NCBI RefSeq assembly: GCF_001434895.1
Contig: NZ_AZEE01000029.1
Coordinates: 101,267 to 165,266 of the forward strand
DNA length: 64,000 bases
Reading direction: 5' to 3'
Source: Secundilactobacillus odoratitofui DSM 19909 = JCM 15043
GTDB lineage: Bacteria; Bacillota; Bacilli; Lactobacillales; Lactobacillaceae
The position numbers and the translations under genes were made by a program. Numbering within the stretch: position 1 is the first letter of the stretch; the number at the start of each line of letters is the position of its first letter. Below, piece by piece: positions 27,914 through 63,798 of this stretch. Under the pieces are notes generated by a model. It searched no databases and was not told the origin of the DNA. It saw nothing but the letters and a program-made list of their open reading frames with translations.

Positions 27914-27956
27914 TCTTTACTTTAAGGATAATTTACTACTGCCACTACCACTACGT

Positions 27957-28126
27957 GCTAGCGGGCTTTTGCCGCTGCTGTGGGACCAGCTTCAGCCACG
28001 CGAAGCACGTGTCTTACGCTTCGTTTCTGAGCCCCACCAAACCCGTAGGTCTCAGAAACGTCCAGTTCCACTAAACGCTGAAGCGTTAAGTGGAACTTGT
28101 CACTGCAGCGGCAAAAGCCCGCTAGC
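27957..28126 (+). repeat. Branched structured element A
   Basis: A perfect 22-bp closing stem (GCTAGCGGGCTTTTGCCGCTGC at 27957-27978 in two parts with 28105-28126) surrounds the conserved TGTGGGACCAGCTTCAGCC. Inside are a CACG/CGTG hairpin, a GTTTCTGAG/CTCAGAAAC hairpin, the linker CGTCCAGT and an AGTTCCACT/AGTGGAACT hairpin. Flanks are CCACTACCACTACG on the left and CTCCGTTCTCGTT on the right. No open frame runs across it. Confidence 0.85.
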
Positions 28127-28319
28127 TCTCCGTTCTCGTTACATTTGAGAAATTATCACCATTAAAAACGAAAACAAAATATAAATCGCTCATTTTCTCT
28201 CGTCTTCACACAAGTCCCAAATTAACCATACAAATAGATAACTTTAAACATCCCACCAAGATATACTTTCGACAGCAATTGACGTCATAATTGTAATTAA
28301 CCTCCAACTCAGCCGTAGT

Positions 28320-28488
28320 GCCACCAGGTATTTTTCGACTGGTGGCAGTGACAAGTGGCAGTTGGCGCTTTAGCGCTTACTGCTCACTGGACGGTTATGA
28401 GACTGGTTTTTAGGCTCATAACCGAGGCGGAAGACGCGCAGCGGCTGCAGCCGGTCCCACAGCCACCGGTCGAAAAATACCTGGTGGC
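28320..28488 (-). repeat. Branched structured element B (facing A)
   Basis: A 27-bp closing stem (28320-28346 with 28462-28488) has one G-T mismatch. On the minus strand the core reads TGTGGGACCGGCTGCAGCC, then a CGC/GCG hairpin, CTTCCGCCTCG, a GGTTATGAG/CTCATAACC hairpin, CGTCCAGT and an AGTG..GCGC/GCGC..CACT hairpin. The stem sequences are unrelated to those of element A while the linkers are the same. It lies 194 bp from A in the opposite orientation. Confidence 0.85.
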
Positions 28489-28521
28489 CGAAGGCGACAT
28501 CGAGCACAACCCGTATCCATC

Positions 28522-28558
28522 AAAAAAAGTTGTTCCTAATGAACTAGGAACAACTTTT
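28522..28558 (-). terminator. Terminator of the pip-oppA operon
   Basis: AAAAGTTGTTCCTA pairs with TAGGAACAACTTTTTTT on the minus strand, about 35 bp after the stop of the binding-protein gene. Confidence 0.85.
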
Positions 28559-28591
28559 CGACGTATTTCTTAAGAGAACTGTTTCAATATG

Positions 28592-30244
28592 CTACTTTTC
28601 AAGGTAAGCACGGGTATAATCGTTTTCACCAACTGGATGATACTCGATGCCCTTCAGCTTTGGATTAACCAGGTGACTTTCAACCATTGAATACAGTGGT
28701 ACAACTGGCATCGTTTCGTTTAACCGCTTTTGAGCCGTCCGCATGTCCTTCCAGTACGAGCTCTCGTTAGCAGCGTTTGACGTCGTTGCATCCGTCATCG
28801 CAGCGTTAAACTGACTATCAGCGTAATGACCGTAGTTTTGTGGATTATTCTTAGTCAAGATTGACAAGAAGTTCTCTGGATCCCCAAAGTCTGCTAACCA
28901 GAAGGTTTGATCAAAATCAAAGGTCCCAGCAGCTTCCTTACCTGACCAGCTCTTAGTTGGCAAGTTTTGCGTTGATACTTTCACATTAGACAACTTTTGT
29001 TGCAACGTTCCTTGCAAATACTGAGCAACATTCTTATACATGGTGTCATCAGCGCCCACTAATTCTAGTGTGACGTTACCCTTAACCTTAGCTTCCTTTA
29101 ACCCTTCCTTCCAAAGCTGTTTAGCCTTGGTAACATTGTAAGTTTCGCTAGGTTTCATTTCAGTCGCAAAGTCCTTACCCGTTGTTGGATCAGTTGCTAG
29201 GCCTTGCGCCACGTAAGTATAAGCTGGTGTTGACCCATCAGCCAACACATCCTTGGTCAAATGATTACGGTCAATGGCCAACGAAACGGCTTGGCGTAAC
29301 TTAACGTTATTGAGTGTTTTACCCGACTTGGTGTTCAACCGTAGATAGTAAGTGCCGGCTTTTTGAACGTGTTGCAGGTTCTTATCTTTTTGCAAGCCTT
29401 GCGCCGTGACACCAGTAATCGTGGCATCATCCAATTGACCCTTACTGAACAAGTTGTGCGCCGTGTTGGCATCCTTAACGACCTGCATGTCGATTTCTTT
29501 CAAGTGGATTGCCTTTTGATCATAGTAATGACTGTTCCGCAACAGCTTCCAGCTATCATTGGTCCCAGTCCAACCGGTGACCTTGAATGGCCCATCAAAG
29601 ACTGTCTTATCTGAACTAGTACCATACTTGCTGCCATACTTTTGAACCACTTTTGAATCTTGTGGGAAGAAGGCGGGCAAGATCATCATTTTACTAAAGT
29701 AAGGCATTGGGTGTTCCAAATTAACTTGGAGCGTATGTGCATCAACTGCTTTGGCACCAAGCTTAGTTGGCGATAACTTACCGTCGCTGATTTTATCAGC
29801 GTTTTTGATACCTGAGAATATGTAGTTGTAACCTGATTTTGATTTAGCTGAAACGGAGCGTTGCCATGATTTTACGAAATCGTTCGCTGTGACGGCATCG
29901 CCATTACTCCACTTGGCATTATGTCGGAGATGGAAAGTATAAGTTTTTCCGTTATTAGTGGGTTTAACCACTGATTCGGCAATCCCAGCAGAAACCTTGT
30001 TATTACTGTCTTGCCGGTATAAGCCTTCCATACTGTTTTCCAAGACGTTCCACATCGTTAAGTCAGCGAAGTTAGAATTATCGAGGGACAACAACTCTGA
30101 ATTTTGCATTAATGAGATCTTCGTCGTACTCCCTGAGGTACTGCTCGAACTACTGCTAGCATTACCCGACGCCTTCGATCCACACGCCGCTAACAACACT
30201 GATAATCCAACTGCTAAACCACCTAAAAGAACTTTATTTTTCAT
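28592..30244 (-). CDS. Oligopeptide ABC transporter substrate-binding lipoprotein (OppA family)
   Basis: The 550-residue lipoprotein has a LLAACG lipobox and the SBP family 5 fold, with FHLRHNAKWSNGDAVTANDF and a C-terminal ESHLVNPKLKGIEYHPVGE. It overlaps the upstream proline iminopeptidase gene by 11 bp, so the two are translated together under one T-box. No permease or ATPase genes are near, so it must dock to an Opp core encoded elsewhere. It is a close paralogue of the binding protein at 19485-21113. Confidence 0.92.
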   Translation of the reverse strand: MKNKVLLGGLAVGLSVLLAACGSKASGNASSSSSSTSGSTTKISLMQNSELLSLDNSNFADLTMWNVLENSMEGLYRQDSNNKVSAGIAESVVKPTNNGKTYTFHLRHNAKWSNGDAVTANDFVKSWQRSVSAKSKSGYNYIFSGIKNADKISDGKLSPTKLGAKAVDAHTLQVNLEHPMPYFSKMMILPAFFPQDSKVVQKYGSKYGTSSDKTVFDGPFKVTGWTGTNDSWKLLRNSHYYDQKAIHLKEIDMQVVKDANTAHNLFSKGQLDDATITGVTAQGLQKDKNLQHVQKAGTYYLRLNTKSGKTLNNVKLRQAVSLAIDRNHLTKDVLADGSTPAYTYVAQGLATDPTTGKDFATEMKPSETYNVTKAKQLWKEGLKEAKVKGNVTLELVGADDTMYKNVAQYLQGTLQQKLSNVKVSTQNLPTKSWSGKEAAGTFDFDQTFWLADFGDPENFLSILTKNNPQNYGHYADSQFNAAMTDATTSNAANESSYWKDMRTAQKRLNETMPVVPLYSMVESHLVNPKLKGIEYHPVGENDYTRAYLEK

Positions 30245-31166
30245 CTGCTGCTACCCCCTGTTTTGACTGATTAAACGTGCCAGCTTCCACATCATCCAAG
30301 AATTCACCAAGCGTATGGAAAAATGCCTTGGGATTATCAGTACTGTGGCAGTGGCCGCCATCAGGTGTATAAACCAAACGTGAGTTACTCATCTCGCGGT
30401 GCATCCGTTCTGCCGTATCAAGTGGCATCGTATCGTGATCGCCAAAAGTTAGTAAGGTCGGCGTTTTAATCTTATGTGTATCAGCTCGCCGATCCCACTC
30501 GGTTAACTTACCAACCATCACAAACTCATTATCACCTTGGAAATAGTTATAAACGGGTGTCGCCATCGTCTCAACGTTATGGCTGAAGCCATTTTCAGGA
30601 TGTCTCATGGCAAAATGGTTATTCAAAACGTCGACTAATTCACGGTACTTCGGATCATCGAAGCGCTCATCCGCTTCAACCTCTTTCATGTAAGCAACGT
30701 CGCGTTTTGACAACGTTTCGTCCCGTTCACGATTAATGTTTTCTATGTATTCGTCCAGGTTATCAATCATGCTCATAACCACGAGACCCTTTAAGTGTTC
30801 CGGATAGCGTAAGGCGTATTCTTGTGCTAACAAACCGCCCCATGAATGACCCAATAAGTAAAAGTGATCCAATCCTAACTGTTGTCGAACCTCTTCTAGT
30901 TCAGACAGATAATAATCAATCGTTAAATACTGACGATTTTCCGGTTTCGTGTAATCCGGCTGGTCTGAATAAAACGAGCCAAGCTGATCGTACATGGATA
31001 CTCGCACGTGGTGGTCAGCTAAGTGTTCCGCAAAGTTTTCAAACTCTTCGTGTGTGCCACCAGGTCCACCATGGACACACAACAGATTCACATCACCTTC
31101 ACCAACCGTTCTGGTAAATAAATGAAATCCATTTTTTAACGTAACGATTCGACTTCCTTGATGCAT
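30234..31166 (-). CDS. pip: Proline iminopeptidase (alpha/beta hydrolase, S33)
   Basis: The cytoplasmic serine peptidase of about 310 residues removes N-terminal proline from peptides. The oxyanion motif LCVHGGPGGTHEEF, the nucleophile elbow LLGHSWGGLLAQ and the late Asp (LLTFGDHDTMPL) and His (TPDGGHCHSTDN) complete the S33 set. I start at the ATG at 31166; the TTG at 31172 is too near GAGGTG. It is co-transcribed with an oligopeptide-binding lipoprotein and preceded by a T-box leader, so it is made when an amino acid runs short. Confidence 0.9.
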   Translation of the reverse strand: MHQGSRIVTLKNGFHLFTRTVGEGDVNLLCVHGGPGGTHEEFENFAEHLADHHVRVSMYDQLGSFYSDQPDYTKPENRQYLTIDYYLSELEEVRQQLGLDHFYLLGHSWGGLLAQEYALRYPEHLKGLVVMSMIDNLDEYIENINRERDETLSKRDVAYMKEVEADERFDDPKYRELVDVLNNHFAMRHPENGFSHNVETMATPVYNYFQGDNEFVMVGKLTEWDRRADTHKIKTPTLLTFGDHDTMPLDTAERMHREMSNSRLVYTPDGGHCHSTDNPKAFFHTLGEFLDDVEAGTFNQSKQGVAADEK

Positions 31167-31204
31167 TCCCAATCACCTCAAACAAATTATTTGCTGAAGT
31201 TAAC

Positions 31205-31490
31205 TAAACAAAGACGCCCTACAAAGATCAATCTGATCTTCATAGGGCGTCTCCGCGGTACCACCTATTCTCGTCCGGTGTTTACACACTGGACCTCTTC
31301 ATCTACGGCCAATTGGCGATAGATTGGCGCTTTAATGGGCGCCTCCCAGTTTGGACTCAGTTCTAACTTGGCCCTCACCGCTCGAAGAGGATAGTCACAG
31401 TCTCACGCATACTACCCTTTCACCAACCGGTAGCTCGCTGCTTACGTTTTAACTGCAATGATTCTTGTCATCGCGTTTGTTTAATTAACG
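31205..31490 (-). promoter_or_regulatory. T-box leader of pip-oppA
   Basis: On the minus strand the T-box motif reads AGGTGGTACCGCGG (about 31266-31253), followed by the terminator AGACGCCCTA..TAGGGCGTCT (31252-31212) with a T-rich end. Upstream is a stem I with a CTACC/GGTAG distal hairpin. The specifier region is GTGACTATCCTC; ATC (Ile) is my best guess but ACT (Thr) is possible. The remaining 31491-31615 is AT-rich promoter with no gene. Confidence 0.92.
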
Positions 31491-31615
31491 TTCATTGTTT
31501 CAACGTGTCCTAATTTAGTCACTTTGCAGAATTTTGTCAACTACGAAATATTTTTTACAGGCGTCAATTCGACAGCTAATCACCGTCATAGCAAGGTTAA
31601 AAACAAATTAAAAAT

Positions 31616-32587
31616 TTATTTTTTTGCCACTTTTATAAAACCAATTCGGTGGTTAAACCAAATCTGTTTAAATGGCTGCCCATTTTCACACACCTTTAAC
31701 CGCCCAGCTTGATCTGTCGCATCAATACCGGTTAACTGATCCACAACGGTATAAGCCTGACCCGACGCCATTTCGCCAACCGATTGAGCGTTTCGACCGG
31801 TACTACCATACACAGGTTCATCTGATTGTGCTCGATGAACCGATACTGCGTATTGACTAGCCACTTGACCATTGGTGTTTAAGAACCAAGCAAGTTGACC
31901 GTCATACCAAATCGCCACCCAATCACCCTGAGTCGCTGCACAAACGTAACTTTGACCATAACTGATCGTCCGAGTCCAACTTGGTTCATTTTCCGTTGTG
32001 AATAATTCACCCGATTGACTGGGCGCCTTATATAACGTTGCATTCTGACAAGTAATCACCAACGGTTGATCAACTTGAACCGGTTGTTCAGTATACGCCG
32101 TTTGCCCCAGTGCCTTAAAAAGTCGTGGCCAATCAAAATAGCGGCCAGGATCTTGGTGCATCTGGATTGCTTGATCAGCACTTGGCGTCGGAACCGAATC
32201 GTGGCCAAGGATGTGTGCTCGGTCTAGTGGAATGTGATATTGGACTGCATAGGTTTTGATCTGTGCAACTAAAGCGTTTAGCATCACCGGCGTAAAACTG
32301 ACTGCGCTGTCGACATAGGCCTCCTGTTCAATTCCAAGAGAACGGCAGTTGATGTCCCAATTACCGGCATGCCATGCTACGTTTTGTGACGCCACCATTT
32401 CAGTCACTAAGCCATCGGTCTGGCGAATCACCACGTGGGCACTCACTTCATTGGGCGCCAAAAACCGCGCAACGGTGTCATCATAAGACAGTTGCGTGGC
32501 ATGGATGATAATATAGCGAATCCCTAAATCTGACGGTCGGTTAGCAACCGTGTAGTTACTTGCCAGGGCTGCAATCTGGTTACGCAT
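31616..32587 (-). CDS. N-acetylmuramoyl-L-alanine amidase (Amidase_2) with SH3-like tail
   Basis: The 323-residue protein has an Amidase_2 domain (about residues 15-165) with zinc-ligand histidines in IRYIIIHATQ and AHILGHDSVPTPSADQ. The rest (about 190-323) carries two SH3b-like units. No signal peptide is seen at the N-terminus (MRNQIAALASNYTVANRPSD), odd for a wall enzyme. It may be released by lysis, use another route, or start elsewhere. It overlaps the C39-like gene by 8 bp, so the two are translationally coupled. Confidence 0.85.
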   Translation of the reverse strand: MRNQIAALASNYTVANRPSDLGIRYIIIHATQLSYDDTVARFLAPNEVSAHVVIRQTDGLVTEMVASQNVAWHAGNWDINCRSLGIEQEAYVDSAVSFTPVMLNALVAQIKTYAVQYHIPLDRAHILGHDSVPTPSADQAIQMHQDPGRYFDWPRLFKALGQTAYTEQPVQVDQPLVITCQNATLYKAPSQSGELFTTENEPSWTRTISYGQSYVCAATQGDWVAIWYDGQLAWFLNTNGQVASQYAVSVHRAQSDEPVYGSTGRNAQSVGEMASGQAYTVVDQLTGIDATDQAGRLKVCENGQPFKQIWFNHRIGFIKVAKK

Positions 32588-34088
32588 TTTGAGTACCTAG
32601 TGAAATCGTCCCTACAAGAGTTGGTGCTGCCAACCGGATCACGTAGACGGTCACCGTGCTGGCTTCCGGGTGCGCCTGTTTAAGAGCGTTAACATCTAGC
32701 AAAATTCGACCCTCGTCGTCCGTTTTTGCATACGCAAAGTGCTGTTGGGCAGTCGTTTCGGTCTGGCCACCGTCATCAAGAGTATACGCAACCGTCGTCG
32801 TACTTGCGTCGTACGAGTCCTTTTTGACAATCATTTCTGGTGTGATGGCAATAACCTGTTCGTTCAGATTAATTTGAAAGGCGTCATGCGCTTCATTAGC
32901 GATCAGTTTTACGTTCACTCGATTAGGTTGCATCAATCGCTCATAACCGGCGTAGTTTTCACCAATCATGTAGGCAACTCGTGAGTGCCAAGCCTCGCTA
33001 AATTGATCGAGCTTGTATAATCGCTTGGCATCCTCATCACTATCGGCATAAGAATCATTAACGGCAACATAATCGACGCCATCTAACTTGGTAAAGCCGG
33101 TGACGAGTAGTAAATGACCAGCAGTGTCGCCAGTCGCGTTTTCAACGTATGGATAATCAGCCTGATCTTGATGATTGCTATATTGGACGCTGACCCCAAC
33201 TGGTAAGCCGAGTGCAATCTGCTTACGAAGTCCGTCCAGGTCAGTATAGGCCGTATAGGCTTTGTAGCCCAGGCTCCCCGCCATGGCAGTACTAAACGAC
33301 CAATTACCAAAGCCTCCGTAGGCAACATCCAGATTACGCAAAGCAGCTTCTTCAGGTAAAATATCCGCATTTTGACGGTTAACCGCCATTGAAATTGTTG
33401 TTGGACTGCAAATACCAGGTGCCAACTTTGGATCACGAATCTCTTGCGAATAAGCGGGCGCTGGAATAACCCGGTCAACTTGAACATCATGGTGATCAAC
33501 CATCAAATCACGTTGTAGTGGTTTAACACTGGCTGCAACCAATTTTAAAACTGGTGTTTGTTGACTATCATTCGAGTATAAATGAACTCTCAATTGTGCT
33601 TGCGAAGCCGAACCTGCCTTTACAGTCAGTGTATCTGTATCGACACTGGCCCGTGGATCATCATTATCATCAACGACGCTAGAGCTTGGTGCATTGGTTG
33701 ACCAACGACCCCAGCTATGCCACTCCGACCAGTAGCCATCAACACCAACCCGGGCTTCGACTTCAACTGCAGTCCCTGCTGGCGTTAGTGCATTCCAAGA
33801 AGCAACTAAGTTTTTAAATAACGGCAAGTCAAATGGTGGTGTCGTCAGCGTCCCTTCACTGACATAATCCTCTTGTTGCTGTGCCAGCACCAGAGCTGAC
33901 GGATCAGCAGCCGCAACGGTTAAATGATCAGTGAATTCGCCTAAATCGACTGCCGAAAAGTCATCAAATAACTTTGTATTCGCCTTAACAGCCGGTGCAA
34001 GTGCCCGGGTATCACGCTTGAAATAGAGGGCAGCTAACCCGGCAGCCAACCCAATTGTTGTTCCCAACAGAAATTTTGATAGTTTCAC
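32580..34088 (-). CDS. Membrane-anchored C39-like cysteine protease
   Basis: The 502-residue protein has an N-terminal membrane anchor (MKLSKFLLGTTIGLAAGLAA), a beta-sandwich region (about 60-200) and a Peptidase_C39_2 domain (about 205-375). Its Cys is in PGICSPTTISMAV, His in TAGHLLLVTGF and Asp/Asn in AVNDSYAD. It probably cuts an extracellular protein or peptide; the substrate is unknown. Coupled by an 8-bp overlap to the amidase gene, it may process that enzyme or act on the same wall material. Confidence 0.82.
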   Translation of the reverse strand: MKLSKFLLGTTIGLAAGLAALYFKRDTRALAPAVKANTKLFDDFSAVDLGEFTDHLTVAAADPSALVLAQQQEDYVSEGTLTTPPFDLPLFKNLVASWNALTPAGTAVEVEARVGVDGYWSEWHSWGRWSTNAPSSSVVDDNDDPRASVDTDTLTVKAGSASQAQLRVHLYSNDSQQTPVLKLVAASVKPLQRDLMVDHHDVQVDRVIPAPAYSQEIRDPKLAPGICSPTTISMAVNRQNADILPEEAALRNLDVAYGGFGNWSFSTAMAGSLGYKAYTAYTDLDGLRKQIALGLPVGVSVQYSNHQDQADYPYVENATGDTAGHLLLVTGFTKLDGVDYVAVNDSYADSDEDAKRLYKLDQFSEAWHSRVAYMIGENYAGYERLMQPNRVNVKLIANEAHDAFQINLNEQVIAITPEMIVKKDSYDASTTTVAYTLDDGGQTETTAQQHFAYAKTDDEGRILLDVNALKQAHPEASTVTVYVIRLAAPTLVGTISLGTQNA

Positions 34089-34248
34089 AGGCTTATCCTC
34101 ACTTTGATCTAGTTAGCAAATTTATTTGTACAAAGTATAACATAATGTGTCGTTTGTTGCGTGAACTGGCTTGGTTGTGCGCATTCTTTAGAATTACTTA
34201 TGGTAAATCGTGACATTAAATGGCATTTTTCGCCCACTACCACTACGG

Positions 34249-34409
34249 CCTAGCGACCGGTTGACGTTGCTACGGGACCGGCTGCAACCACTTCGTGTTT
34301 TCCGCCTTGGCTCTAAGCCTCAAGGACCGAGTCTTAGAACCGTCCAGTCTGACTAAGTGCGAAACGCACTAAGTCAGACTTATCGCTGCTACGTCAACCG
34401 GTCACTAGG
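34249..34409 (+). repeat. Branched structured element C
   Basis: The closing stem 34249-34270/34388-34409 pairs at 20 of 22 positions. The core is GGGACCGGCTGCAACC, then CAC-TTC-GTG, TTTTCCGCCTTGG, a CTCTAAG/CTTAGA hairpin, CGTCCAGT, an AGTCTGACT/AGTCAGACT hairpin and TATCGCTGC. Flanks CCCACTACCACTACG and CCTTCGTTCCCGTT resemble those of element A. Confidence 0.85.
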
Positions 34410-34556
34410 CCTTCGTTCCCGTTACAAAGTAAATCATTTAACTTTTTGTTTTCTGAATACTAGGACACATTCATTCACATCCACCGCTCTGAAAAACAAT
34501 GACAACGGACATGTCTCACCATTTGGCGGCCTTCAATGCGCTTTGTTAACCGTAGT

Positions 34557-34735
34557 GTCACCAGTGGTCTTTTCAGTTAATGGCAGTGATTAGTCGCAGT
34601 TGACGCTTTAGCGTTTACTGCGACTGGACGGCTTTTGAGACTCATTGCTTTTTGATGAGGCTCAAAACCGAGGCGTAAAACGCGTAGCGGTTGAAGCCGG
34701 TCCCACAGCCACTAACTGAAAAGGCCACTGGTGAC
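34557..34735 (-). repeat. Branched structured element D (facing C)
   Basis: The 28-nt closing arms 34557-34584 and 34708-34735 pair at 26 positions (plus one wobble). On the minus strand the core reads TGTGGGACCGGCTTCAACC, a CGC-TAC-GCG hairpin, TTTTACGCCTCGG, a TTTTGAG/CTCAAAA hairpin, CGTCCAGT and a CGCAGT/ACTGCG hairpin. It faces C across 147 bp, the same layout as A and B. Confidence 0.85.
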
Positions 34736-34859
34736 CGGAGGTGACAGTCAAAAGAATCCCTACTACTTGTTCTTGAGCATTGTACAACTCAAGTAAAATA
34801 TTTTCTCACCTTTTTCACATTTAAGTGTTGACAAGCCATAATTCAGGGTGTAGATTGAT

Positions 34860-35160
34860 ACCAATCATTAAATTTAGATGAAAGGCGTTGACGAGAAACA
34901 TCAATCCCGTTTCGGATCAAGAGAGTTGCCGTTTGGTGTGAGGCAATGACGAGCGAGTGCGATGATCATCTCTGAGCTGTGTGCCGAACCGGCTAAGCCG
35001 AAGTAGAACACATTGGGTGCACCCATTATCGTGCCAAGCGTATCGCATTTTTGCCGTACGTGAGAGGTTATTTCAGTAATGAAATTTCGAATTAAGGTGG
35101 TACCACGTGAAAGCGTCCTTACTTGCAACGAGTTTGCAGTAAGGACGCTTTTTCGTTTCT
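34860..35160 (+). promoter_or_regulatory. T-box leader without an intact first gene
   Basis: AAGGTGGTACCACG (35094-35107) is the T-box motif, followed by the terminator AGCGTCCTTACT / AGTAAGGACGCTTTTT (35112-35153). Upstream is a stem I with a TTGCC/GGCAA distal hairpin. The specifier region GCGATGATCATCTC allows ATG (Met) or ATC (Ile). The first downstream frame is a 37-codon remnant and the first full gene starts 310 bp later. Confidence 0.9.
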
Positions 35161-35197
35161 AAATTTAACTAACGAACATTAAAGGTGGTGAGGACAA

Positions 35198-35311
35198 TTG
35201 GAAGTTGGCATTAAGAGCACAGACGATAGCGACATTCAGATTTCACATATTGTATTAACACATAGCGTCAATGAAGCGCAATTTCTCATTGAACTCGCCA
35301 AATTAGGGTGA
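35198..35311 (+). pseudogene. Short remnant ORF after the T-box
   Basis: A 37-codon frame starts at a TTG with GAGG 4 nt upstream and stops at TGA. It encodes EVGIKSTDDSD, then ISHIVLTHSVNEAQFLIELA. The VLTH..NE..F pattern resembles the ACT tail of a homoserine dehydrogenase, and EVGI resembles that enzyme's N-terminal strand. This suggests an internally deleted biosynthetic gene of the T-box regulon. It is too short to be functional as an enzyme; identity is a guess. Confidence 0.4.
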
Positions 35312-35314
35312 GTC

Positions 35315-35422
35315 ACACATAACACACATAGTAACAACGATTTCTCAACACATATTGTACCAACAAGTTAGTCATACCATATTTCACACATATGCAACAA
35401 CACATAATGTTTTACACACATA
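35315..35422. repeat. Cluster of ACACATA repeats
   Basis: ACACATA occurs exactly at 35315, 35324, 35348, 35386, 35400 and 35416, plus once upstream at 35258, with extra ACATA cores at 35441-35455. Spacing is irregular. The stretch is strongly C/A-biased on the plus strand and lies between the T-box remnant and the hydratase gene. It could bind a regulator or be unpaired leader RNA. Confidence 0.7.
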
Positions 35423-35472
35423 GCACTATTGATTGACATCACATAACAAACATAATTTTGGAGGTCTCGCCC

Positions 35473-36288
35473 ATGAGTGAACAAGTATTAAGCAAACAAA
35501 CCTTATCAGAAAAAGAAGCTAAGTTAGCAAAGGATCTATTTAACGCCTACACCACCCACAAGCCACTAACCGAAGCTGATTACGATGGCTTCGTTGACAC
35601 AGAAGAAGCCGCTTACCGCGTTCAACGTCAACTCACTGAAGACAAGAACGAGGCAGTTGGTGGCTACAAAGTGTCACTAACCAGTAAGCAAACCCAAGAT
35701 ATGTTCGACTCAGACTCACCATTATACGGTGCGCAGTTAAAGAGTCACTTCGTTAAATCACCACATACGGTTGAAGCAAGCGAAGTCATGGAACCCCTCG
35801 CTGAAGTTGAAATGATGTTTACCGCTAAGGAAGATCTTTCAGCTAATGATTCACTTGAAGATCTCTTCCACAAAACGACGGTTGCGCCCGCAGTTGAAGT
35901 ACCGGACTCACGTTTCAGTGACTGGTTCCCAAGCCTATCGAAGTATATGGTCATGTCTGACGCAGCTGTTGGCGGCTACGTAGTTTACGGTGAAGAAGCA
36001 GACACCGACAAGTTATTTGAAACCACTGATGATTTAGCTCATGTCACTTGTGAACTATTCCATGACGGTAAAAAGCTCAAAGATGGTGCCTCTTCAGAGG
36101 TGCTCGGTAACCCACTCAATTCACTACAATGGTTGGTTAAAAAGCTTGAAGATCAAGGCATGCCACTAAAGGCTGGCCAACGGGTTTCAAGCGGCACTTT
36201 CCTACTACCTGAATCACTCACTAAGGGTGATTGGAAAGCTACCTTTGACAAAGGGATGGGCGCCGTTTATCTCCACGTTAATCGTTAA
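35473..36288 (+). CDS. 2-keto-4-pentenoate hydratase-like protein (FAH superfamily)
   Basis: The protein of about 271 residues resembles the MhpD/HpcG hydratase branch. Marks are YRVQRQLTEDKNEAVGGYKV, YGAQL, and the metal-binding acidic group in EPLAEVEMMF and VAPAVEVPDSRFSDW. Members hydrate or decarboxylate 2-oxo-alkenoates in aromatic breakdown. No other such pathway gene is near, so the substrate here is open. The start is the ATG at 35473 with GGAGG 8 nt upstream; a TTG at 35458 is in frame but would put the ribosome binding site inside the gene. Confidence 0.78.
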   Translation: MSEQVLSKQTLSEKEAKLAKDLFNAYTTHKPLTEADYDGFVDTEEAAYRVQRQLTEDKNEAVGGYKVSLTSKQTQDMFDSDSPLYGAQLKSHFVKSPHTVEASEVMEPLAEVEMMFTAKEDLSANDSLEDLFHKTTVAPAVEVPDSRFSDWFPSLSKYMVMSDAAVGGYVVYGEEADTDKLFETTDDLAHVTCELFHDGKKLKDGASSEVLGNPLNSLQWLVKKLEDQGMPLKAGQRVSSGTFLLPESLTKGDWKATFDKGMGAVYLHVNR

Positions 36289-36381
36289 TTGATGGTAACA
36301 AATTTTTAAAAACCTTCTATATTATAGTTTCACACACACCATTCCAAGTCTGGACCGTTCCCGCGGTCCACAAACACAACT

Positions 36382-36425
36382 AAGGCGTTGCAGCTTTCCA
36401 ATCCCGGAAGTTGCAACGCCTTTTT
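36382..36425 (+). terminator. Terminator after the hydratase gene
   Basis: AAGGCGTTGCAGCTT pairs with AAGTTGCAACGCCTTTTT around an 11-nt loop. The ends allow it to serve the convergent aminotransferase gene as well. Confidence 0.85.
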
Positions 36426-36471
36426 ATGTGATATGCTGACGGCCTTTCATTAAATAATTGTTTACGTCCCT

Positions 36472-37641
36472 TTAAAACAGGTTAAGTTTACCGATTCGTT
36501 CGCAAGCTTCAGTAAAGCGTGGTTCGTCAATTAACAAACCGACCCGGACGTAACCTTCACCGCTAGCACCGAACCCCGTACCAGGTGCGACCGCCACGGC
36601 AGCCTTATCCAATAAAAGATCCGCAAAGCTTTCACTCGTATATCCCTTTGGTACCGGCATCCAAGCATAAAAGGCCCCGCCAGATGGATAAGGTTCCCAG
36701 CCAATTTTGCGTGCAGCTGCATAGAATTGATCACGTTGCTTCTGGTATAGGGCAACGAGCGCCTTGACGCTTGATTGATCACTATTTAAGGCTGCAACGG
36801 CTGCATCCTGAATGGCTGGGAAAACAGATACAAACAAGTGATCTTGAATCAGATTGAGGGCTTCAATCATGTCGGCGTTACCGACCGCAAAGCCGATCCG
36901 CCACCCAGCCATGTTATATGACTTCGATAACGTGTACATCTCGATACCGACTTCTTTGGCGCCGGGTGTCTGTAAGAAACTAGCTGGTCGCTGACCGTCG
37001 AAACCAATCGCACCATACGCAAAATCTTGGACGACCCCAATTTGATGCTGCTTAGCAAAAGCCACCGTCTGCTTGTAAAAATCAGGTGTCGCAATCGCAC
37101 CGGTAGGGTTATTCGGGTAATTGAGATACATTAATTTGGCTTGGTCAACCGTTGCTGGATCCAGTTTTTGGTAATCTGGTAGGTAATGATTGTCAGCAGA
37201 TAAGTGCATTAATGCTAATTTAACCTGCGCTAATGCCACCCCTGAAAGATAATCGGGGTAACCGGGGTCAGGTAACAGCATGGTGTCACCTGGGTTTAAA
37301 AGTGCAAATGGTAACTCAACCAAACCAATCTTGGAGCCACCCAAAATAGCGACTTCCTTTTCAGGGTCAAGCTCAACGCCATATTCACGTTGGTAAAAAT
37401 CAGCAGCCGCTTGCTTTAAATTAGGCATGCCCCGAAATTGAGAGTACTTATGGCTTGCCGGATCTGCGGTCGCTTCTTGCATGGCTTTGACAATAAAATC
37501 TGGTGTCGGTTGGTCAGGATTCCCCTGTCCTAAATTGATAACGTCCGCCCCTGACGCAACTTTGGCGTTGACCTTTGCAACTAAACTGGCAAAGAACTGT
37601 TTCGGTAATTGCTGTAAAACCTTAGATTCTTCAAACTTCAA
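36472..37641 (-). CDS. Class I/II PLP-dependent aminotransferase
   Basis: The 389-residue cytoplasmic enzyme has the fold-type I pattern: INLGQGNPDQPTPDFIV, YLNYPNNPTGAIATP, VVQDFAYGAI, the Schiff-base lysine in LSKSYNMAGWRIGFAVG, and the C-terminal Arg in YVRVGLL. It is closest in look to the MtnE/PatA-type group acting on methionine, aromatic or diaminopimelate-pathway keto acids. The exact substrate cannot be set by eye. It starts at TTG (37641) with AAGGAGG 7 nt upstream. The leader contains an unusual perfect palindrome. Confidence 0.88.
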   Translation of the reverse strand: MKFEESKVLQQLPKQFFASLVAKVNAKVASGADVINLGQGNPDQPTPDFIVKAMQEATADPASHKYSQFRGMPNLKQAAADFYQREYGVELDPEKEVAILGGSKIGLVELPFALLNPGDTMLLPDPGYPDYLSGVALAQVKLALMHLSADNHYLPDYQKLDPATVDQAKLMYLNYPNNPTGAIATPDFYKQTVAFAKQHQIGVVQDFAYGAIGFDGQRPASFLQTPGAKEVGIEMYTLSKSYNMAGWRIGFAVGNADMIEALNLIQDHLFVSVFPAIQDAAVAALNSDQSSVKALVALYQKQRDQFYAAARKIGWEPYPSGGAFYAWMPVPKGYTSESFADLLLDKAAVAVAPGTGFGASGEGYVRVGLLIDEPRFTEACERIGKLNLF

Positions 37642-37667
37642 ATCGTTTCCTCCTTCAACATGGTGGT

Positions 37668-37697
37668 GTGAGTAAAAGTTGCCTAGGCAACCTCACA
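37668..37697. promoter_or_regulatory. Palindrome in the aminotransferase leader
   Basis: GTTGCCTAGGCAAC (37678-37691) is a perfect 14-bp palindrome, extended by TGTGAG/CTCACA arms with a 5-nt bulge. It lies about 30 bp upstream of the TTG start on the minus strand. It may be an operator or an RNA hairpin. Confidence 0.45.
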
Positions 37698-37836
37698 ATC
37701 TATGTAATTTAAAAGTCTCATTAAGATTAAATTAAATCACACTTTGAAAATCAATTCAAATCGGACTTAGTTATCATCAGATTCCAACATTGTGCTATAC
37801 ATGCGGCAGCATTTCTGCTATGATATTGCCATAATA

Positions 37837-37857
37837 CATGTTAGCTTTTATAACATG
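37837..37857. promoter_or_regulatory. Inverted repeat in the glnP-type leader
   Basis: CATGTTA and TAACATG form a perfect 7-bp inverted repeat with a 7-nt gap, 17 bp before the start codon and just upstream of CAGGAGG. It is placed well for an operator or a ribosome-site hairpin. Confidence 0.45.
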
Positions 37858-37874
37858 ATCTCAGGAGGCTCAGT

Positions 37875-39314
37875 ATGAAACGCAGCTTTGCATCGGTTGT
37901 GAGCGGTTTAGCGGTTCTGATCACCCTCTTAGTAACATTAGGGTTCAGCACTACACCGGCGAAGGCAACCACAACTTACCAAATTGGAACGGACGTCACC
38001 TTCCCACCATTTGAATTTGCCAACAAGCAGAACAAGTATGTTGGGATTGATATGGACTTGATGCGTGCCATTGCTAAAGATCAAGGATTCAAGGTTAACA
38101 TTAAACCAGTCGGCTTCAACGCTGCTGTTCAAGCTGTCCAGTCTGGCCAACTCGACGGTGTCATTGCCGGGATGTCGATCACAAAGGAACGTGAAGCCAC
38201 TTTTGATTTTTCAAAGCCTTACTTCACATCCGGTGTGGTCATGGCCGTTCAGCCAAAGGGTTCGGTCACTAAACTCAGTCAGCTTCGTGGTAAAAAGGTC
38301 GCCGTCAAGACCGGTACTTCTGGTGCGGACTATGCTAAAAGCATTCAAAAAAAATACGGGTTTAAAATCGTTACCTTCGATGACTCTAATAATATGTACG
38401 AAGACGTCATGACTGGTAACTCGGCCGCCTGTTTTGAAGATTCCCCCGTTATGCAATATGGGATCAAGCAAGGGACCAAACTTAAAATCGTGACAAAACC
38501 AGCCGAGAGCGGTTCATATGGCTTTGCTGTTCAAAAGGGTAAGAACCAAAAGCTCCTCAAGCTGTTTAACAAGGGGCTTGCTGATTTGAAGGCAAATGGG
38601 ACCTACGATAAAATCACTCAAAAGTATTTGGGCACAACGAAGAGTTCCGATTCTGCTTCTGATCGAAGTATCATTGGCCTGTTAAAGCAAAACAAGAGTG
38701 CTCTAATCAGCGGGTTTGAAGAAACCCTTTGGCTCACCATCGTAGCGATTTTCTTTGCCACCCTATTCGGCGTACTCGTTGGTTTGATGGGCGTTGTACC
38801 AAGTAAATTCATGAACGGTGTATCAACAACTTTGATTTACGTTTTCCGTGGTTTACCATTACTAGTGTTAGCCCTCTTTATTTATACTGGGATCCCAAGC
38901 TTAACGGGACAAAAAATTCCTGCTTTCGTTGCCGGGATTATCACGCTGATGTTTAATGAAGGGGCCTACATTGCCGCCTTTGTTAAGGGCGGTATCAACG
39001 CTGTCGATAGTGGTCAAATGGAAGCAGCACGTAGTCTGGGGCTCCCGTTTGGCAAGGCCATGCGCCGTATCATCCTGCCACAAGGCATTCGAATTATGAT
39101 TCCATCATTTATCAACCAATTCATTATTACCCTAAAAGATACGTCAATTCTTTCCATTATTGGTATCTTAGAGTTAACACAAACCGGTAAAATTATCATT
39201 GCCAGAAACTTGGAGGGCTTCAAGGTGTGGTCCATCATCGCGGTCATCTACCTCGTCATCATCACTCTCTTAACATGGTTATCTAACTGGGTTCAAAGGA
39301 GAACACGACTATGA
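37875..39314 (+). CDS. Amino acid ABC transporter, fused substrate-binding and permease protein (GlnP-like)
   Basis: The 479-residue fusion has a signal peptide ending near TTPAKA, an SBP family 3 domain (about 33-255; [35 protein letters not shown]-type motif) and a HisM-like permease domain (about 280-475) with the EAA loop [20 protein letters not shown]. The binding domain is tethered to its own channel, as in lactic acid bacterial GlnP. It imports a polar amino acid, likely glutamine or similar. The start overlaps none; the ATPase gene overlaps its end as ATGA. Confidence 0.92.
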
Positions 39315-40048
39315 GTACAAAAGTAAAAGTAACGGATTTAATTAAAACTTACGGCGACAATGAAGTACTCAAGGGCATCAACCTATCCGTCGAAAACAAT
39401 GAAGTGGTCGTTGTCATTGGTCCTTCGGGTTCTGGTAAAAGTACCTTTCTGCGCACCCTTAATAAATTAGAGGAACCCACATCAGGCTCAATTATTATCG
39501 ATGACATGGACATTGCTGATTCAAAGACCGATATCAATAAAGTGCGCGAAAACATCGGCATGGTATTTCAACACTTCAACTTATTTAATAACCTCTCCGT
39601 TGGCGAAAACATCATGTTAGCACCGGTTGAGTTGAAAAAAGAAAACAAGGCAGAAGCTGCTGAACAAGCCAAAAAGTTACTGGCAACGGTTGGCCTGGAA
39701 TCAAAGTTTGATGCCACTGTGCAGTCCCTCTCAGGTGGTCAACAACAACGGGTAGCGATTGCCCGCGCCCTCGCGATGAATCCTGACGTCATGTTATTTG
39801 ACGAACCAACTTCGGCCCTTGACCCTGAAATGGTGGGCGACGTGCTCGAAGTCATGAAGAACCTTGCCCAACAAGGGATGACCATGATCGTGGTCACCCA
39901 CGAAATGGGCTTCGCCAAGGAAGTTGCCGACCGCGTTGTGTTCGTGGATGATGGCAATATTCAAGAACAAGGGACGCCGGATGAAATCTTTAATCATCCG
40001 CAAAATCCACGTTTACAGGATTTTTTGAACAAAGTTTTGAACGTTTAA
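39311..40048 (+). CDS. Amino acid ABC transporter ATP-binding protein (GlnQ-like)
   Basis: The 245-residue ABC ATPase of the polar amino acid class has Walker [14 protein letters not shown]-loop region [13 protein letters not shown], signature [17 protein letters not shown], Walker [17 protein letters not shown] and H-loop VTHEMGFAK. It dimerises under the GlnP-like permease encoded just upstream. The overlap (ATGA) shows coupled translation. A strong terminator follows after 10 bp, so the operon has only these two genes. Confidence 0.94.
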
Positions 40049-40057
40049 TGGTTTATG

Positions 40058-40090
40058 AACCGACCTTCAGTACATGGAGGCCGGTTTTTT
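40058..40090 (+). terminator. Terminator of the glnPQ-type operon
   Basis: AACCGACCTTCA pairs with TGGAGGCCGGTT, followed by TTTT, 10 bp after the stop. Confidence 0.85.
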
Positions 40091-40124
40091 CAATTATTGA
40101 GAAGTACATTGCCACTGCCACTAC

Positions 40125-40259
40125 GTCTAGCAGTATTTGGCCGTTGCTGTGGGACCGGCTTCAGCCACATCCAAAAAACGATGTGTCTTCCACCTCGTCG
40201 CTGAGCCTCAAAAACCGGGTCTCAGCGGCTTCCAGTGCCACGGCCAAATACTGCTAGAC
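40125..40259 (+). repeat. Branched structured element E (short form)
   Basis: A perfect 20-bp closing stem (GTCTAGCAGTATTTGGCCGT at 40125-40144 with 40240-40259) surrounds TGTGGGACCGGCTTCAGCC, an ACATC/GATGT hairpin, TCTTCCACCTCG, a CGCTGAG/CTCAGCG hairpin and CTTCCAGT. The last inner hairpin of A-D is missing. Flanks GCCACTGCCACTAC and CTCCGTTCTCGTT match element A. It lies alone, with no facing partner. Confidence 0.85.
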
Positions 40260-63439: not shown

Positions 63440-63582
63440 CTAGAAAAAACCGACCGGAGAAATTCCCCAGCCGGCAGTTTTAGACGTTATTTAACAACGT
63501 TAACTTTCCTACGCGAGGGTTAGCTCACAGGTTCAAAGGGTTCGGTCGGTCACCGTCTCAGCAATATGCGCCCCTAGTTAAT
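63440..63582 (-). promoter_or_regulatory. TPP riboswitch with terminator
   Basis: On the minus strand ACTAGGGGCGC, GCTGAGACGG and GAACCTGTGAGCTAACCC followed by GCGTAGGAAAGTTAACG are the conserved thi-box parts (about 63580-63495). A terminator follows (CCGGCTGGGGA / TCTCCGGTCGG, 63477-63450, then TTTTTT). Thiamine pyrophosphate should shut off tenA by early termination. Confidence 0.95.
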
Positions 63583-63798
63583 TGATTTATTTAATCAAGT
63601 ATACCACAGCTCAAATGATTCGTTCGGGAATTGTATTTGCCCTTTAGAGGATTCCGATGGCTTCTCCAGTCAGCGATTATTTCAAACCGTAATTCCTGAA
63701 TTAGGGTAGCTTTTGGCGAAAATAGCTAGTATGATAAATTAAACTTTTCAAATAATTACATTAAATTCGTTTTAATTTTTCACAATAAACTGAAATTC

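What the first reader, a model, noticed from the sequence alone, without database searches (positions are those of the whole stretch)
27957..40259. A family of five branched intergenic elements with covarying stems
Elements at 27957-28126, 28320-28488, 34249-34409, 34557-34735 and 40125-40259 share one layout: a 20-28 bp closing stem, then TGTGGGACCGGCTnCArCC, a short CAC/GTG or CGC/GCG hairpin, TTCCGCCTCG, a ..TGAG/CTCA.. hairpin, CGTCCAGT, a third hairpin (missing in the last copy) and TnTCrCTGC. The linkers are conserved while the stems change completely yet still pair: A GCTAGCGGGC.., B GCCACCAGGT.., C CCTAGCGACC.., D GTCACCAGTG.., E GTCTAGCAGT... Compensatory change over whole helices means the fold matters, as RNA or as single-stranded DNA. 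I do not recognise the family. It could be a structured RNA, an attC-like recombination substrate, or a MITE read by a structure-sensing transposase.
Basis: seen in the sequence. Interest (0 to 1): 0.92.

Follow-up and report, generated by a model that had tools for sequence, protein, structure and literature searches.

The report
Branched, paired mobile repeats of Lactobacillales
The window holds copies of an apparently undescribed family of intergenic DNA repeats, each folding into a branched tree and often set in mirror-image pairs, found in many lactic acid bacteria; the fold is kept while its letters change, so something in the cell probably reads the shape.

Summary
The five elements belong to a family with at least 111 listed places in this genome. 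A covariance model finds it in 12 of 15 genomes of the genus (own included), in 69 of 301 of the family, and in 7 genomes of a second family of the order. No Rfam family matches the elements at its threshold.

In this genome all 39 close neighbours form inverted doublets: A+B and C+D are each one unit, E a lone half. Pairing is kept through double changes, also at loci shared by several species. Orientation to replication is fixed in 47 of 52 main units, 48 of 57 with five diverged loci. Two clean empty sites show insertion.

Best reading: a REPIN-like mobile doublet read as folded single strands by an unknown enzyme; Y1 transposase and reverse transcriptase are each missing from several multi-copy genomes. 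A structured RNA is the main rival, though no promoter was found.

The parts
27940..28499 (.). Unit 1: inverted doublet (L element A, spacer, R element B) with outer ends TGCCACTACCACTACG (left) and CGAAGGCGACA (right)
   Evidence: sequence; cmsearch; similar ends in other copies
27956..28126 (-). Element A (L type), branched fold; the strand favoured to fold is the minus strand
   Evidence: 181.1 bits; strand asymmetry
28128..28142 (-). L inner motif, GTAACGAGAACGG on the folding strand
   Evidence: 35 of 88 elements fit the L pattern used as anchor, 34 the R pattern, 19 neither
28143..28310 (.). Spacer of unit 1; spacers are mostly not conserved and show no promoter signal
28320..28488 (+). 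Element B (R type); folding strand is the plus strand
   Evidence: 158.2 bits
34231..34747 (.). Unit 2: inverted doublet (elements C and D)
   Evidence: sequence; cmsearch
34248..34409 (-). Element C (L type)
   Evidence: 144.6 bits
34557..34736 (+). Element D (R type)
   Evidence: 156.7 bits
40110..40273 (-). Unit 3: lone L element E (40126-40259) with outer and inner L motifs; third hairpin missing, no R partner found by the model
   Evidence: 72.3 bits, E = 1.3e-17, not in the training set; sequence

Best explanation
The elements are the two ends of a small non-autonomous mobile unit (about 430-700 bp in this genome) of the REPIN/BIME kind: two homologous branched elements, L and R, in inverted order around a mostly unconserved spacer. 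Shown: the family and doublet architecture, pairing kept through compensated change, one-strand wobble asymmetry, a strong orientation rule to replication in this genome, intergenic placement, and presence or absence of whole units at otherwise matching sites. Inferred: the unit spreads when a protein recognises each element as a folded single DNA strand, the strand whose 3' end points out of the unit. L would be read on the lagging-strand template at the fork, which would give the orientation bias. The mobiliser is unknown; a Y1 transposase or reverse transcriptase encoded today cannot be the general answer, since several multi-copy genomes lack each. Some lone elements are decayed or incomplete doublets. 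Exchange between copies, or re-insertion, may explain why about 20 bp of the closing stem can differ at one site between close species.
For: Doublets: neighbours closer than 700 bp run (-,+) in folding-strand sense, 39 of 39 in this genome and 34 of 35 in other genera. Orientation: 47 of 52 main G000 units have the L folding strand on the G-rich strand, including 4 of 4 between genes that run against the fork (recount); in low-copy relatives 17 of 19 R-like elements fold on the C-rich strand, though many are orthologues of each other. Insertion: a doublet (about 600 bp) and a lone L (about 230 bp) present in G337 and G293 are missing in G322, G323 and G235, with only 2-7 bp between the matching flanks. 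Placement: 0 of 171 units inside an ORF of 80 aa or more (ORFs with over a quarter of their length in an element were set aside first); convergent junctions 52 of 149 against 111 of 636 for all junctions in the same loci. Wobble asymmetry has the same sense for L and R although they lie on opposite strands, so a replication-strand mutation bias does not explain it.
Against: No mobiliser found. Y1_Tnp: none in multi-copy G000, G293, G337; present in 7 of 15 and 18 of 36 genomes, among them multi-copy G010 and G322, a fragment in G323, and low-copy genomes. RVT_1: none in G000, G337, G323, G316, G081; present in G010, G293 and G322, and in 0 of 7 low-copy genomes, so a weak link is not excluded. 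Five diverged own-genome loci (L061-L065), left out, go 1 with and 4 against the orientation rule, 48 of 57 in all. In low-copy relatives only 1 of 3 close neighbours is an inverted doublet, two are tandem. Lone unclassified elements of other genera show no rule (19 against 13, 3 undecided). G.U content (4.2%) is near that of 19 tRNAs (6.0%), which suits RNA as well. L and R fold on opposite strands, so a one-strand IS608-like excision does not follow directly. At one locus sites that looked empty held what I read as decayed remnants, so some absences are losses.
Confidence: 0.47

Rival explanations
1. A structured non-coding RNA family: each element is transcribed on its folding strand (outward from the spacer) and the folded RNA binds a protein or acts in trans; copies multiply by an unknown route.
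For: G.U against A.C of 148:31 in this genome and 118:39 in the further copies; lower energy of the folding strand in 57 of 58 and 59 of 61; G.U fraction near that of tRNAs; paralogues of 90-95% identity differ by 63 wobble-type, 43 compensated and 30 broken pairs; shared loci keep the fold.
Against: No promoter excess over shuffles in 38 own and 34 other spacers and no fixed -10/-35 upstream; several relatives have terminator-like hairpins on one or both sides (by eye); no Rfam family at threshold; an RNA gene needs no orientation to the fork that ignores gene direction.
Confidence: 0.27
2. Host-useful chromosome element (protein-binding cruciform, fork or supercoil element) spread long ago and kept copy by copy by selection on the host.
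For: Copies at four loci shared by 2-5 species keep pairing: 151 pair comparisons with compensated double change, 45 one-sided, 60 broken; orientation to the fork; no unit inside an ORF.
Against: Matches run from 0 to over 100 per genome within one genus; decay and loss are seen; about 594 kb of contig C5 holds no listed copy.
Confidence: 0.13
3. Palindrome correction: replication template switching copies one arm onto the other, so the stems stay paired without selection.
For: About 20 bp of the closing stem can differ at one site yet stay palindromic.
Against: Correction alone would give no G.U excess on one strand and would not conserve unpaired linkers between genera (sequences).
Confidence: 0.07

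Closest known systems
REPIN / BIME with RAYT transposase (Bertels and Rainey 2011, PMC3116915; passages seen)
   Same: Two inverted copies of an intergenic palindromic element around a less conserved spacer form the unit; compensatory changes are called common; lone REPs are described as remnants.
   Different: Each half is about 170 nt with three hairpins on a long closing stem, not a REP of about 20 bp; no Y1 gene in multi-copy G000, G293 and G337; hosts found here are Lactobacillales; orientation to the fork in this genome.
Intergenic stem-loop repeat families such as BOX, RUP, ERIC, YPAL and Efa-1 (Cozzuto et al. 2008, PMC2267715; passages seen)
   Same: Intergenic and structured. Efa-1 of Enterococcus faecalis (model of 163 nt, 65 copies, 18 complete, two adjacent stem-loops) is of similar size and order.
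   Different: No sequence of Efa-1 was at hand, so kinship is untested; the passages seen do not describe inverted doublets with a three-hairpin core.
IS200/IS605 ends (recalled)
   Same: Hairpins read as single strands, link to the lagging-strand template, no target duplication.
   Different: There both hairpins act on one strand; here L and R favour opposite strands. No Y1 gene in G000.
Integron attC sites (recalled)
   Same: A folded single strand with conserved unpaired features.
   Different: No inverted core sites flank the stem; inverted doublets rather than a direct array.

Membership tests
REPIN/RAYT | Unit is an inverted doublet of a palindromic intergenic element | tested here: met
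   39 of 39 own and 34 of 35 other-genera close neighbours are (-,+); in low-copy relatives of the genus only 1 of 3
REPIN/RAYT | A Y1 (RAYT-like) transposase gene in the genome | tested here: not met
   PF01797: 0 matches in G000, G293 and G337, all multi-copy; present in multi-copy G010 and G322
REPIN/RAYT | Short REP core of about 20 bp | tested here: not met
   core of about 170 nt with three hairpins
Rfam structured RNA families | Match at gathering score | tested here: not met
   only a TPP riboswitch elsewhere in the window; 0 in 9 loci of relatives. Sub-threshold over B: SSRC8_2, a Streptococcus sRNA, 17.0 bits against 72, E 0.019, not repeated, where only a miRNA model, MIR837, 23.7 bits against 117, appears; in 8 further loci no listed match overlaps an element
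Structured RNA gene (general) | Covariation with G.U on one strand | tested here: met
Structured RNA gene (general) | Own promoter or transcript | tested here: inconclusive
   no promoter signal; no RNA data available
MITE (TIR plus target duplication) | Target site duplication | tested here: inconclusive
   none seen at site 1; a possible 4-bp AACA at site 2 that may be microhomology
MITE (TIR plus target duplication) | Clean insertion against empty site | tested here: met
   two sites
Integron attC | Inverted core sites beside the stem | tested here: not met
   L flanks GTAACGAGAACGG and GTAGTGGTAGTG are not inverted copies (by eye)
Integron attC | Integron integrase in the genome | not tested
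   no search was made for it
Group II intron or other retroelement | Reverse transcriptase available | tested here: not met
   PF00078: none in G000, G337, G323, G316, G081; present in G010, G293, G322

The most novel reading that the evidence does not exclude
A Lactobacillales-wide class of mobile genetic element made only of two branched folding ends, moved at the replication fork by an enzyme that reads the fold and is neither a Y1 transposase nor a reverse transcriptase, with folded copies kept by selection at fixed loci over the life of a genus.
Probability: 0.32. Interest if true: 0.85.

Novelty: new variant of a known kind. Interest (0 to 1): 0.72.

Why it matters
It is an unusually elaborate structured repeat for bacteria, with over 100 copies in one genome and none or a few in relatives of the same genus. 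If DNA, it points to an unknown enzyme that reads branched single strands; if RNA, to a large unlisted RNA family. Either way the pair A/B gives a ready bait.

Tried and rejected
Promoters in the spacer: no fixed motif, no excess over shuffles. Y1 transposase as general driver: missing from three multi-copy genomes. Reverse transcriptase: missing from five of eight multi-copy genomes tested; found in 3 of 8 of these and 0 of 7 low-copy ones. Autonomous partner: two gaps of about 0.8-0.9 kb between outward elements were read; one holds a 271-aa gene I take to be recX (recalled, not searched), the other ORFs of at most 108 aa. Viral contigs gave 4 pattern hits, none with a model hit, and 0 for a second pattern; no blastn match with unit 1 in plasmids or phages. 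Ten loci of the second family (f5) showed no evident transposase by eye, without a domain search; two have a gene resembling Rpn nucleases beside partial elements (name recalled). The first empty-site attempt turned out to hold what I read as decayed remnants. In the complete genome G337 blast hits do not separate L from R, so no replichore map was made. Kinship with Efa-1 could not be tested. Literature: searches showed no description of this family in the listings; passages were seen of PMC3116915 and PMC2267715 only, all others are listing only.

Full report
WHAT IS THERE. The five elements are real and at the stated places. Each element has a long closing stem (P1) and up to three hairpins joined by conserved linkers, with GGAC/GTCC enclosing two of them. 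E lacks one hairpin.

SCALE. blastn with A gives 61 matches at about 50 places in the own genome and none in 40 relatives, 14 of them of the same genus, at E <= 1e-4. A covariance model from 57 copies lists 111 distinct places in the own genome, none closer than 257 bp to the next (130 matches were reported, some unlisted, and matches on both strands of one palindrome may be among them). It has matches in 12 of 15 genomes of the genus at E <= 0.01, own included: 83 in G010, 1-7 in ten others, none in three. It finds 69 of 301 genomes of the family, 12 of 40 genera, at E <= 0.001, with only 9 candidates scored per genome. In 395 genomes of the order it finds 22 at E <= 1e-4, 7 of them in a second family with few copies. 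A pattern scan of named genomes followed by the model names hosts: Companilactobacillus nantensis, huachuanensis, hulinensis, nodensis, jidongensis, insicii; Lactiplantibacillus mudanjiangensis, herbarum; Levilactobacillus mulengensis, lanxiensis; Furfurilactobacillus milii. G293 is probably C. nantensis, since its contig C3 and NZ_AZFV01000011.1 both have 84,981 bases. Rfam: no match over an element at gathering score; below it, SSRC8_2 (a Streptococcus sRNA, 17.0 bits against 72, E 0.019) spans B but is not seen, and one search lists nothing over an element in 8 loci.

KEPT FOLD. Sequence-only alignment of 58 copies: 47 of 61 pairs with double-sided change. Sixty-one further copies: 94.8% paired, none of 500 shuffles as high on any measure (alignment fitted to the model). 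Among own-genome paralogues of 85-90% identity, compensated double changes number 501 against 181 broken and 295 one-sided; at 90-95% they number 43, 30 and 63 (sequence pairs are not independent). At four loci shared by 2-5 species, comparisons give 151 compensated, 45 one-sided and 60 broken pairs. A flanking protein compared at three of these four is 86-97% identical; at one locus only one neighbour is shared by all five species, and one species (L077) was left out.

STRAND. The reverse complement folds better in 57 of 58 and, in the further copies, the same strand in 59 of 61. Because L and R lie on opposite chromosome strands yet show the same sense, a replication-strand mutation bias does not explain it. 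The folding strand has its 3' end at the outer end of the unit for both elements. Its wobble content, 4.2% in this genome and 3.5% in the further copies, is near the 6.0% (25 of 420 pairs) of 19 tRNAs; A.C is 0.9% and 1.1%, and none of 420 in the tRNAs.

ARCHITECTURE. Neighbours within 700 bp are (-,+) in folding sense: 39 of 39 in the own genome, 34 of 35 in other genera, but 1 of 3 in low-copy relatives of the genus, where two are tandem. L carries GTAACGAGAACGG before and GTAGTGGTAGTG after the fold; R carries AGCCGTAGTG before and CCGRAGGCG after. These served as anchors: 35 of 88 elements fit L, 34 R, 19 neither. Unit ends often read TGYC inwards (32 of 35 L and 28 of 34 R could be anchored). 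Most spacers are not conserved.

POSITION. 0 of 171 units lie inside an ORF (ORFs with over a quarter of their length in an element were set aside first). Of 149 units with both neighbours within 1.2 kb, 52 lie between convergent, 84 between co-directional and 13 between divergent genes; all junctions of the same loci are 111, 426 and 99 of 636, the units' own included. In the own genome 47 of 52 units have the L folding strand on the strand that is G-rich over the contig, taken as the leading-strand sequence; between genes against the fork it is 4 of 4, so gene direction does not explain it. Five loci with diverged copies (L061-L065) were left out of that count; they go 1 with and 4 against, their typing being less sure, so the full tally is 48 of 57. 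In low-copy relatives 17 of 19 R-like elements fold on the C-rich strand, many being orthologues. For lone, unclassified elements in other genera it is 19 G-rich, 13 C-rich, 3 undecided. dnaA lies on contig C24.

MOBILITY. Site 1: a doublet (about 600 bp) at L235:17228-17829 in G337, also in G293, is missing in G322, G323 and G235, with flanks meeting at ACAAG/GTCTAT in G322 and no duplication seen. Site 2: a lone L (about 230 bp) at L236:631-863, also spanned in G293, is missing in the same three, with a possible 4-bp AACA repeat. Loss in all three is less simple than one gain but is not excluded. Site 4: G337 has a doublet where G293 has only L; outer flank and core match, but the outer 20 bp of the stem agree at 7 of 20 positions and each stem is palindromic. 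At the L101 locus G337 and G323 hold what I read as decayed remnants. So there is gain, decay and replacement.

MECHANISM. The data fit a REPIN-like doublet mobilised through folded single strands at the fork. No mobiliser is known: Y1_Tnp is absent from G000, G293 and G337, though present in multi-copy G010 and G322; RVT_1 is absent from G000, G337, G323, G316 and G081, though present in G010, G293 and G322. G316 and G081 count as multi-copy because 9 of 9 scored candidates matched. The RNA reading is not excluded, but no promoter was found.

STANDING. Closest in architecture are REPINs (PMC3116915, passages), but the enzyme test fails, so it is 'works like', not 'is'. That IS200/IS605 elements and group II introns favour the lagging-strand template is recalled knowledge. 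I found no description in the listings of the held library (searches under Tried and rejected); most subscription journals are not in it.

Noticed in passing
G000 contig C5, about 86-680 kb: No listed copy of the family in about 594 kb, where about 17 units would be expected at the genome-wide rate (based on 111 listed places of 130 reported matches).
   Followed up: partly
L235, L236 (G337) against L244, L272 (G293): At matching sites parts of the closing stem, or the whole R half and spacer, are unlike between close species while flanks and core stay alike; exchange between copies or re-insertion is possible.
   Followed up: partly
L236:16559-16730 and L235:17474-17631: Some spacers in G337 share a terminator-like hairpin, about GGCTAGGTATTT...ATACCTAGCC followed by T6 (by eye).
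   Followed up: no
L010, L019, L022, L026, L029 (own genome): A subclass of R elements has a much longer third hairpin (CCAATGATGTAAGGGTGAAG...); in L010 and L022 a run of 10 N lies inside the element, perhaps a scaffold gap caused by the palindrome.
   Followed up: no
L277:6167-7030 and L280:5207-6070: A gene resembling Rpn recombination-promoting nucleases (name recalled, no domain search) sits beside a partial element in two genomes of the second family.
   Followed up: no
window 28320-28490, plus strand: A weak full-length match of element B to SSRC8_2, a Streptococcus sRNA model (17.0 bits against 72), in one Rfam scan, not seen in a second.
   Followed up: partly
window 63489-63585, minus strand: TPP riboswitch (RF00059, 61.7 bits).
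   Followed up: no
most aligned elements: The hairpins tend to keep one mismatch at a fixed place (A.G within AGAC/GGCU in two, U.U in the third), as if a protein reads it (by eye).
   Followed up: no
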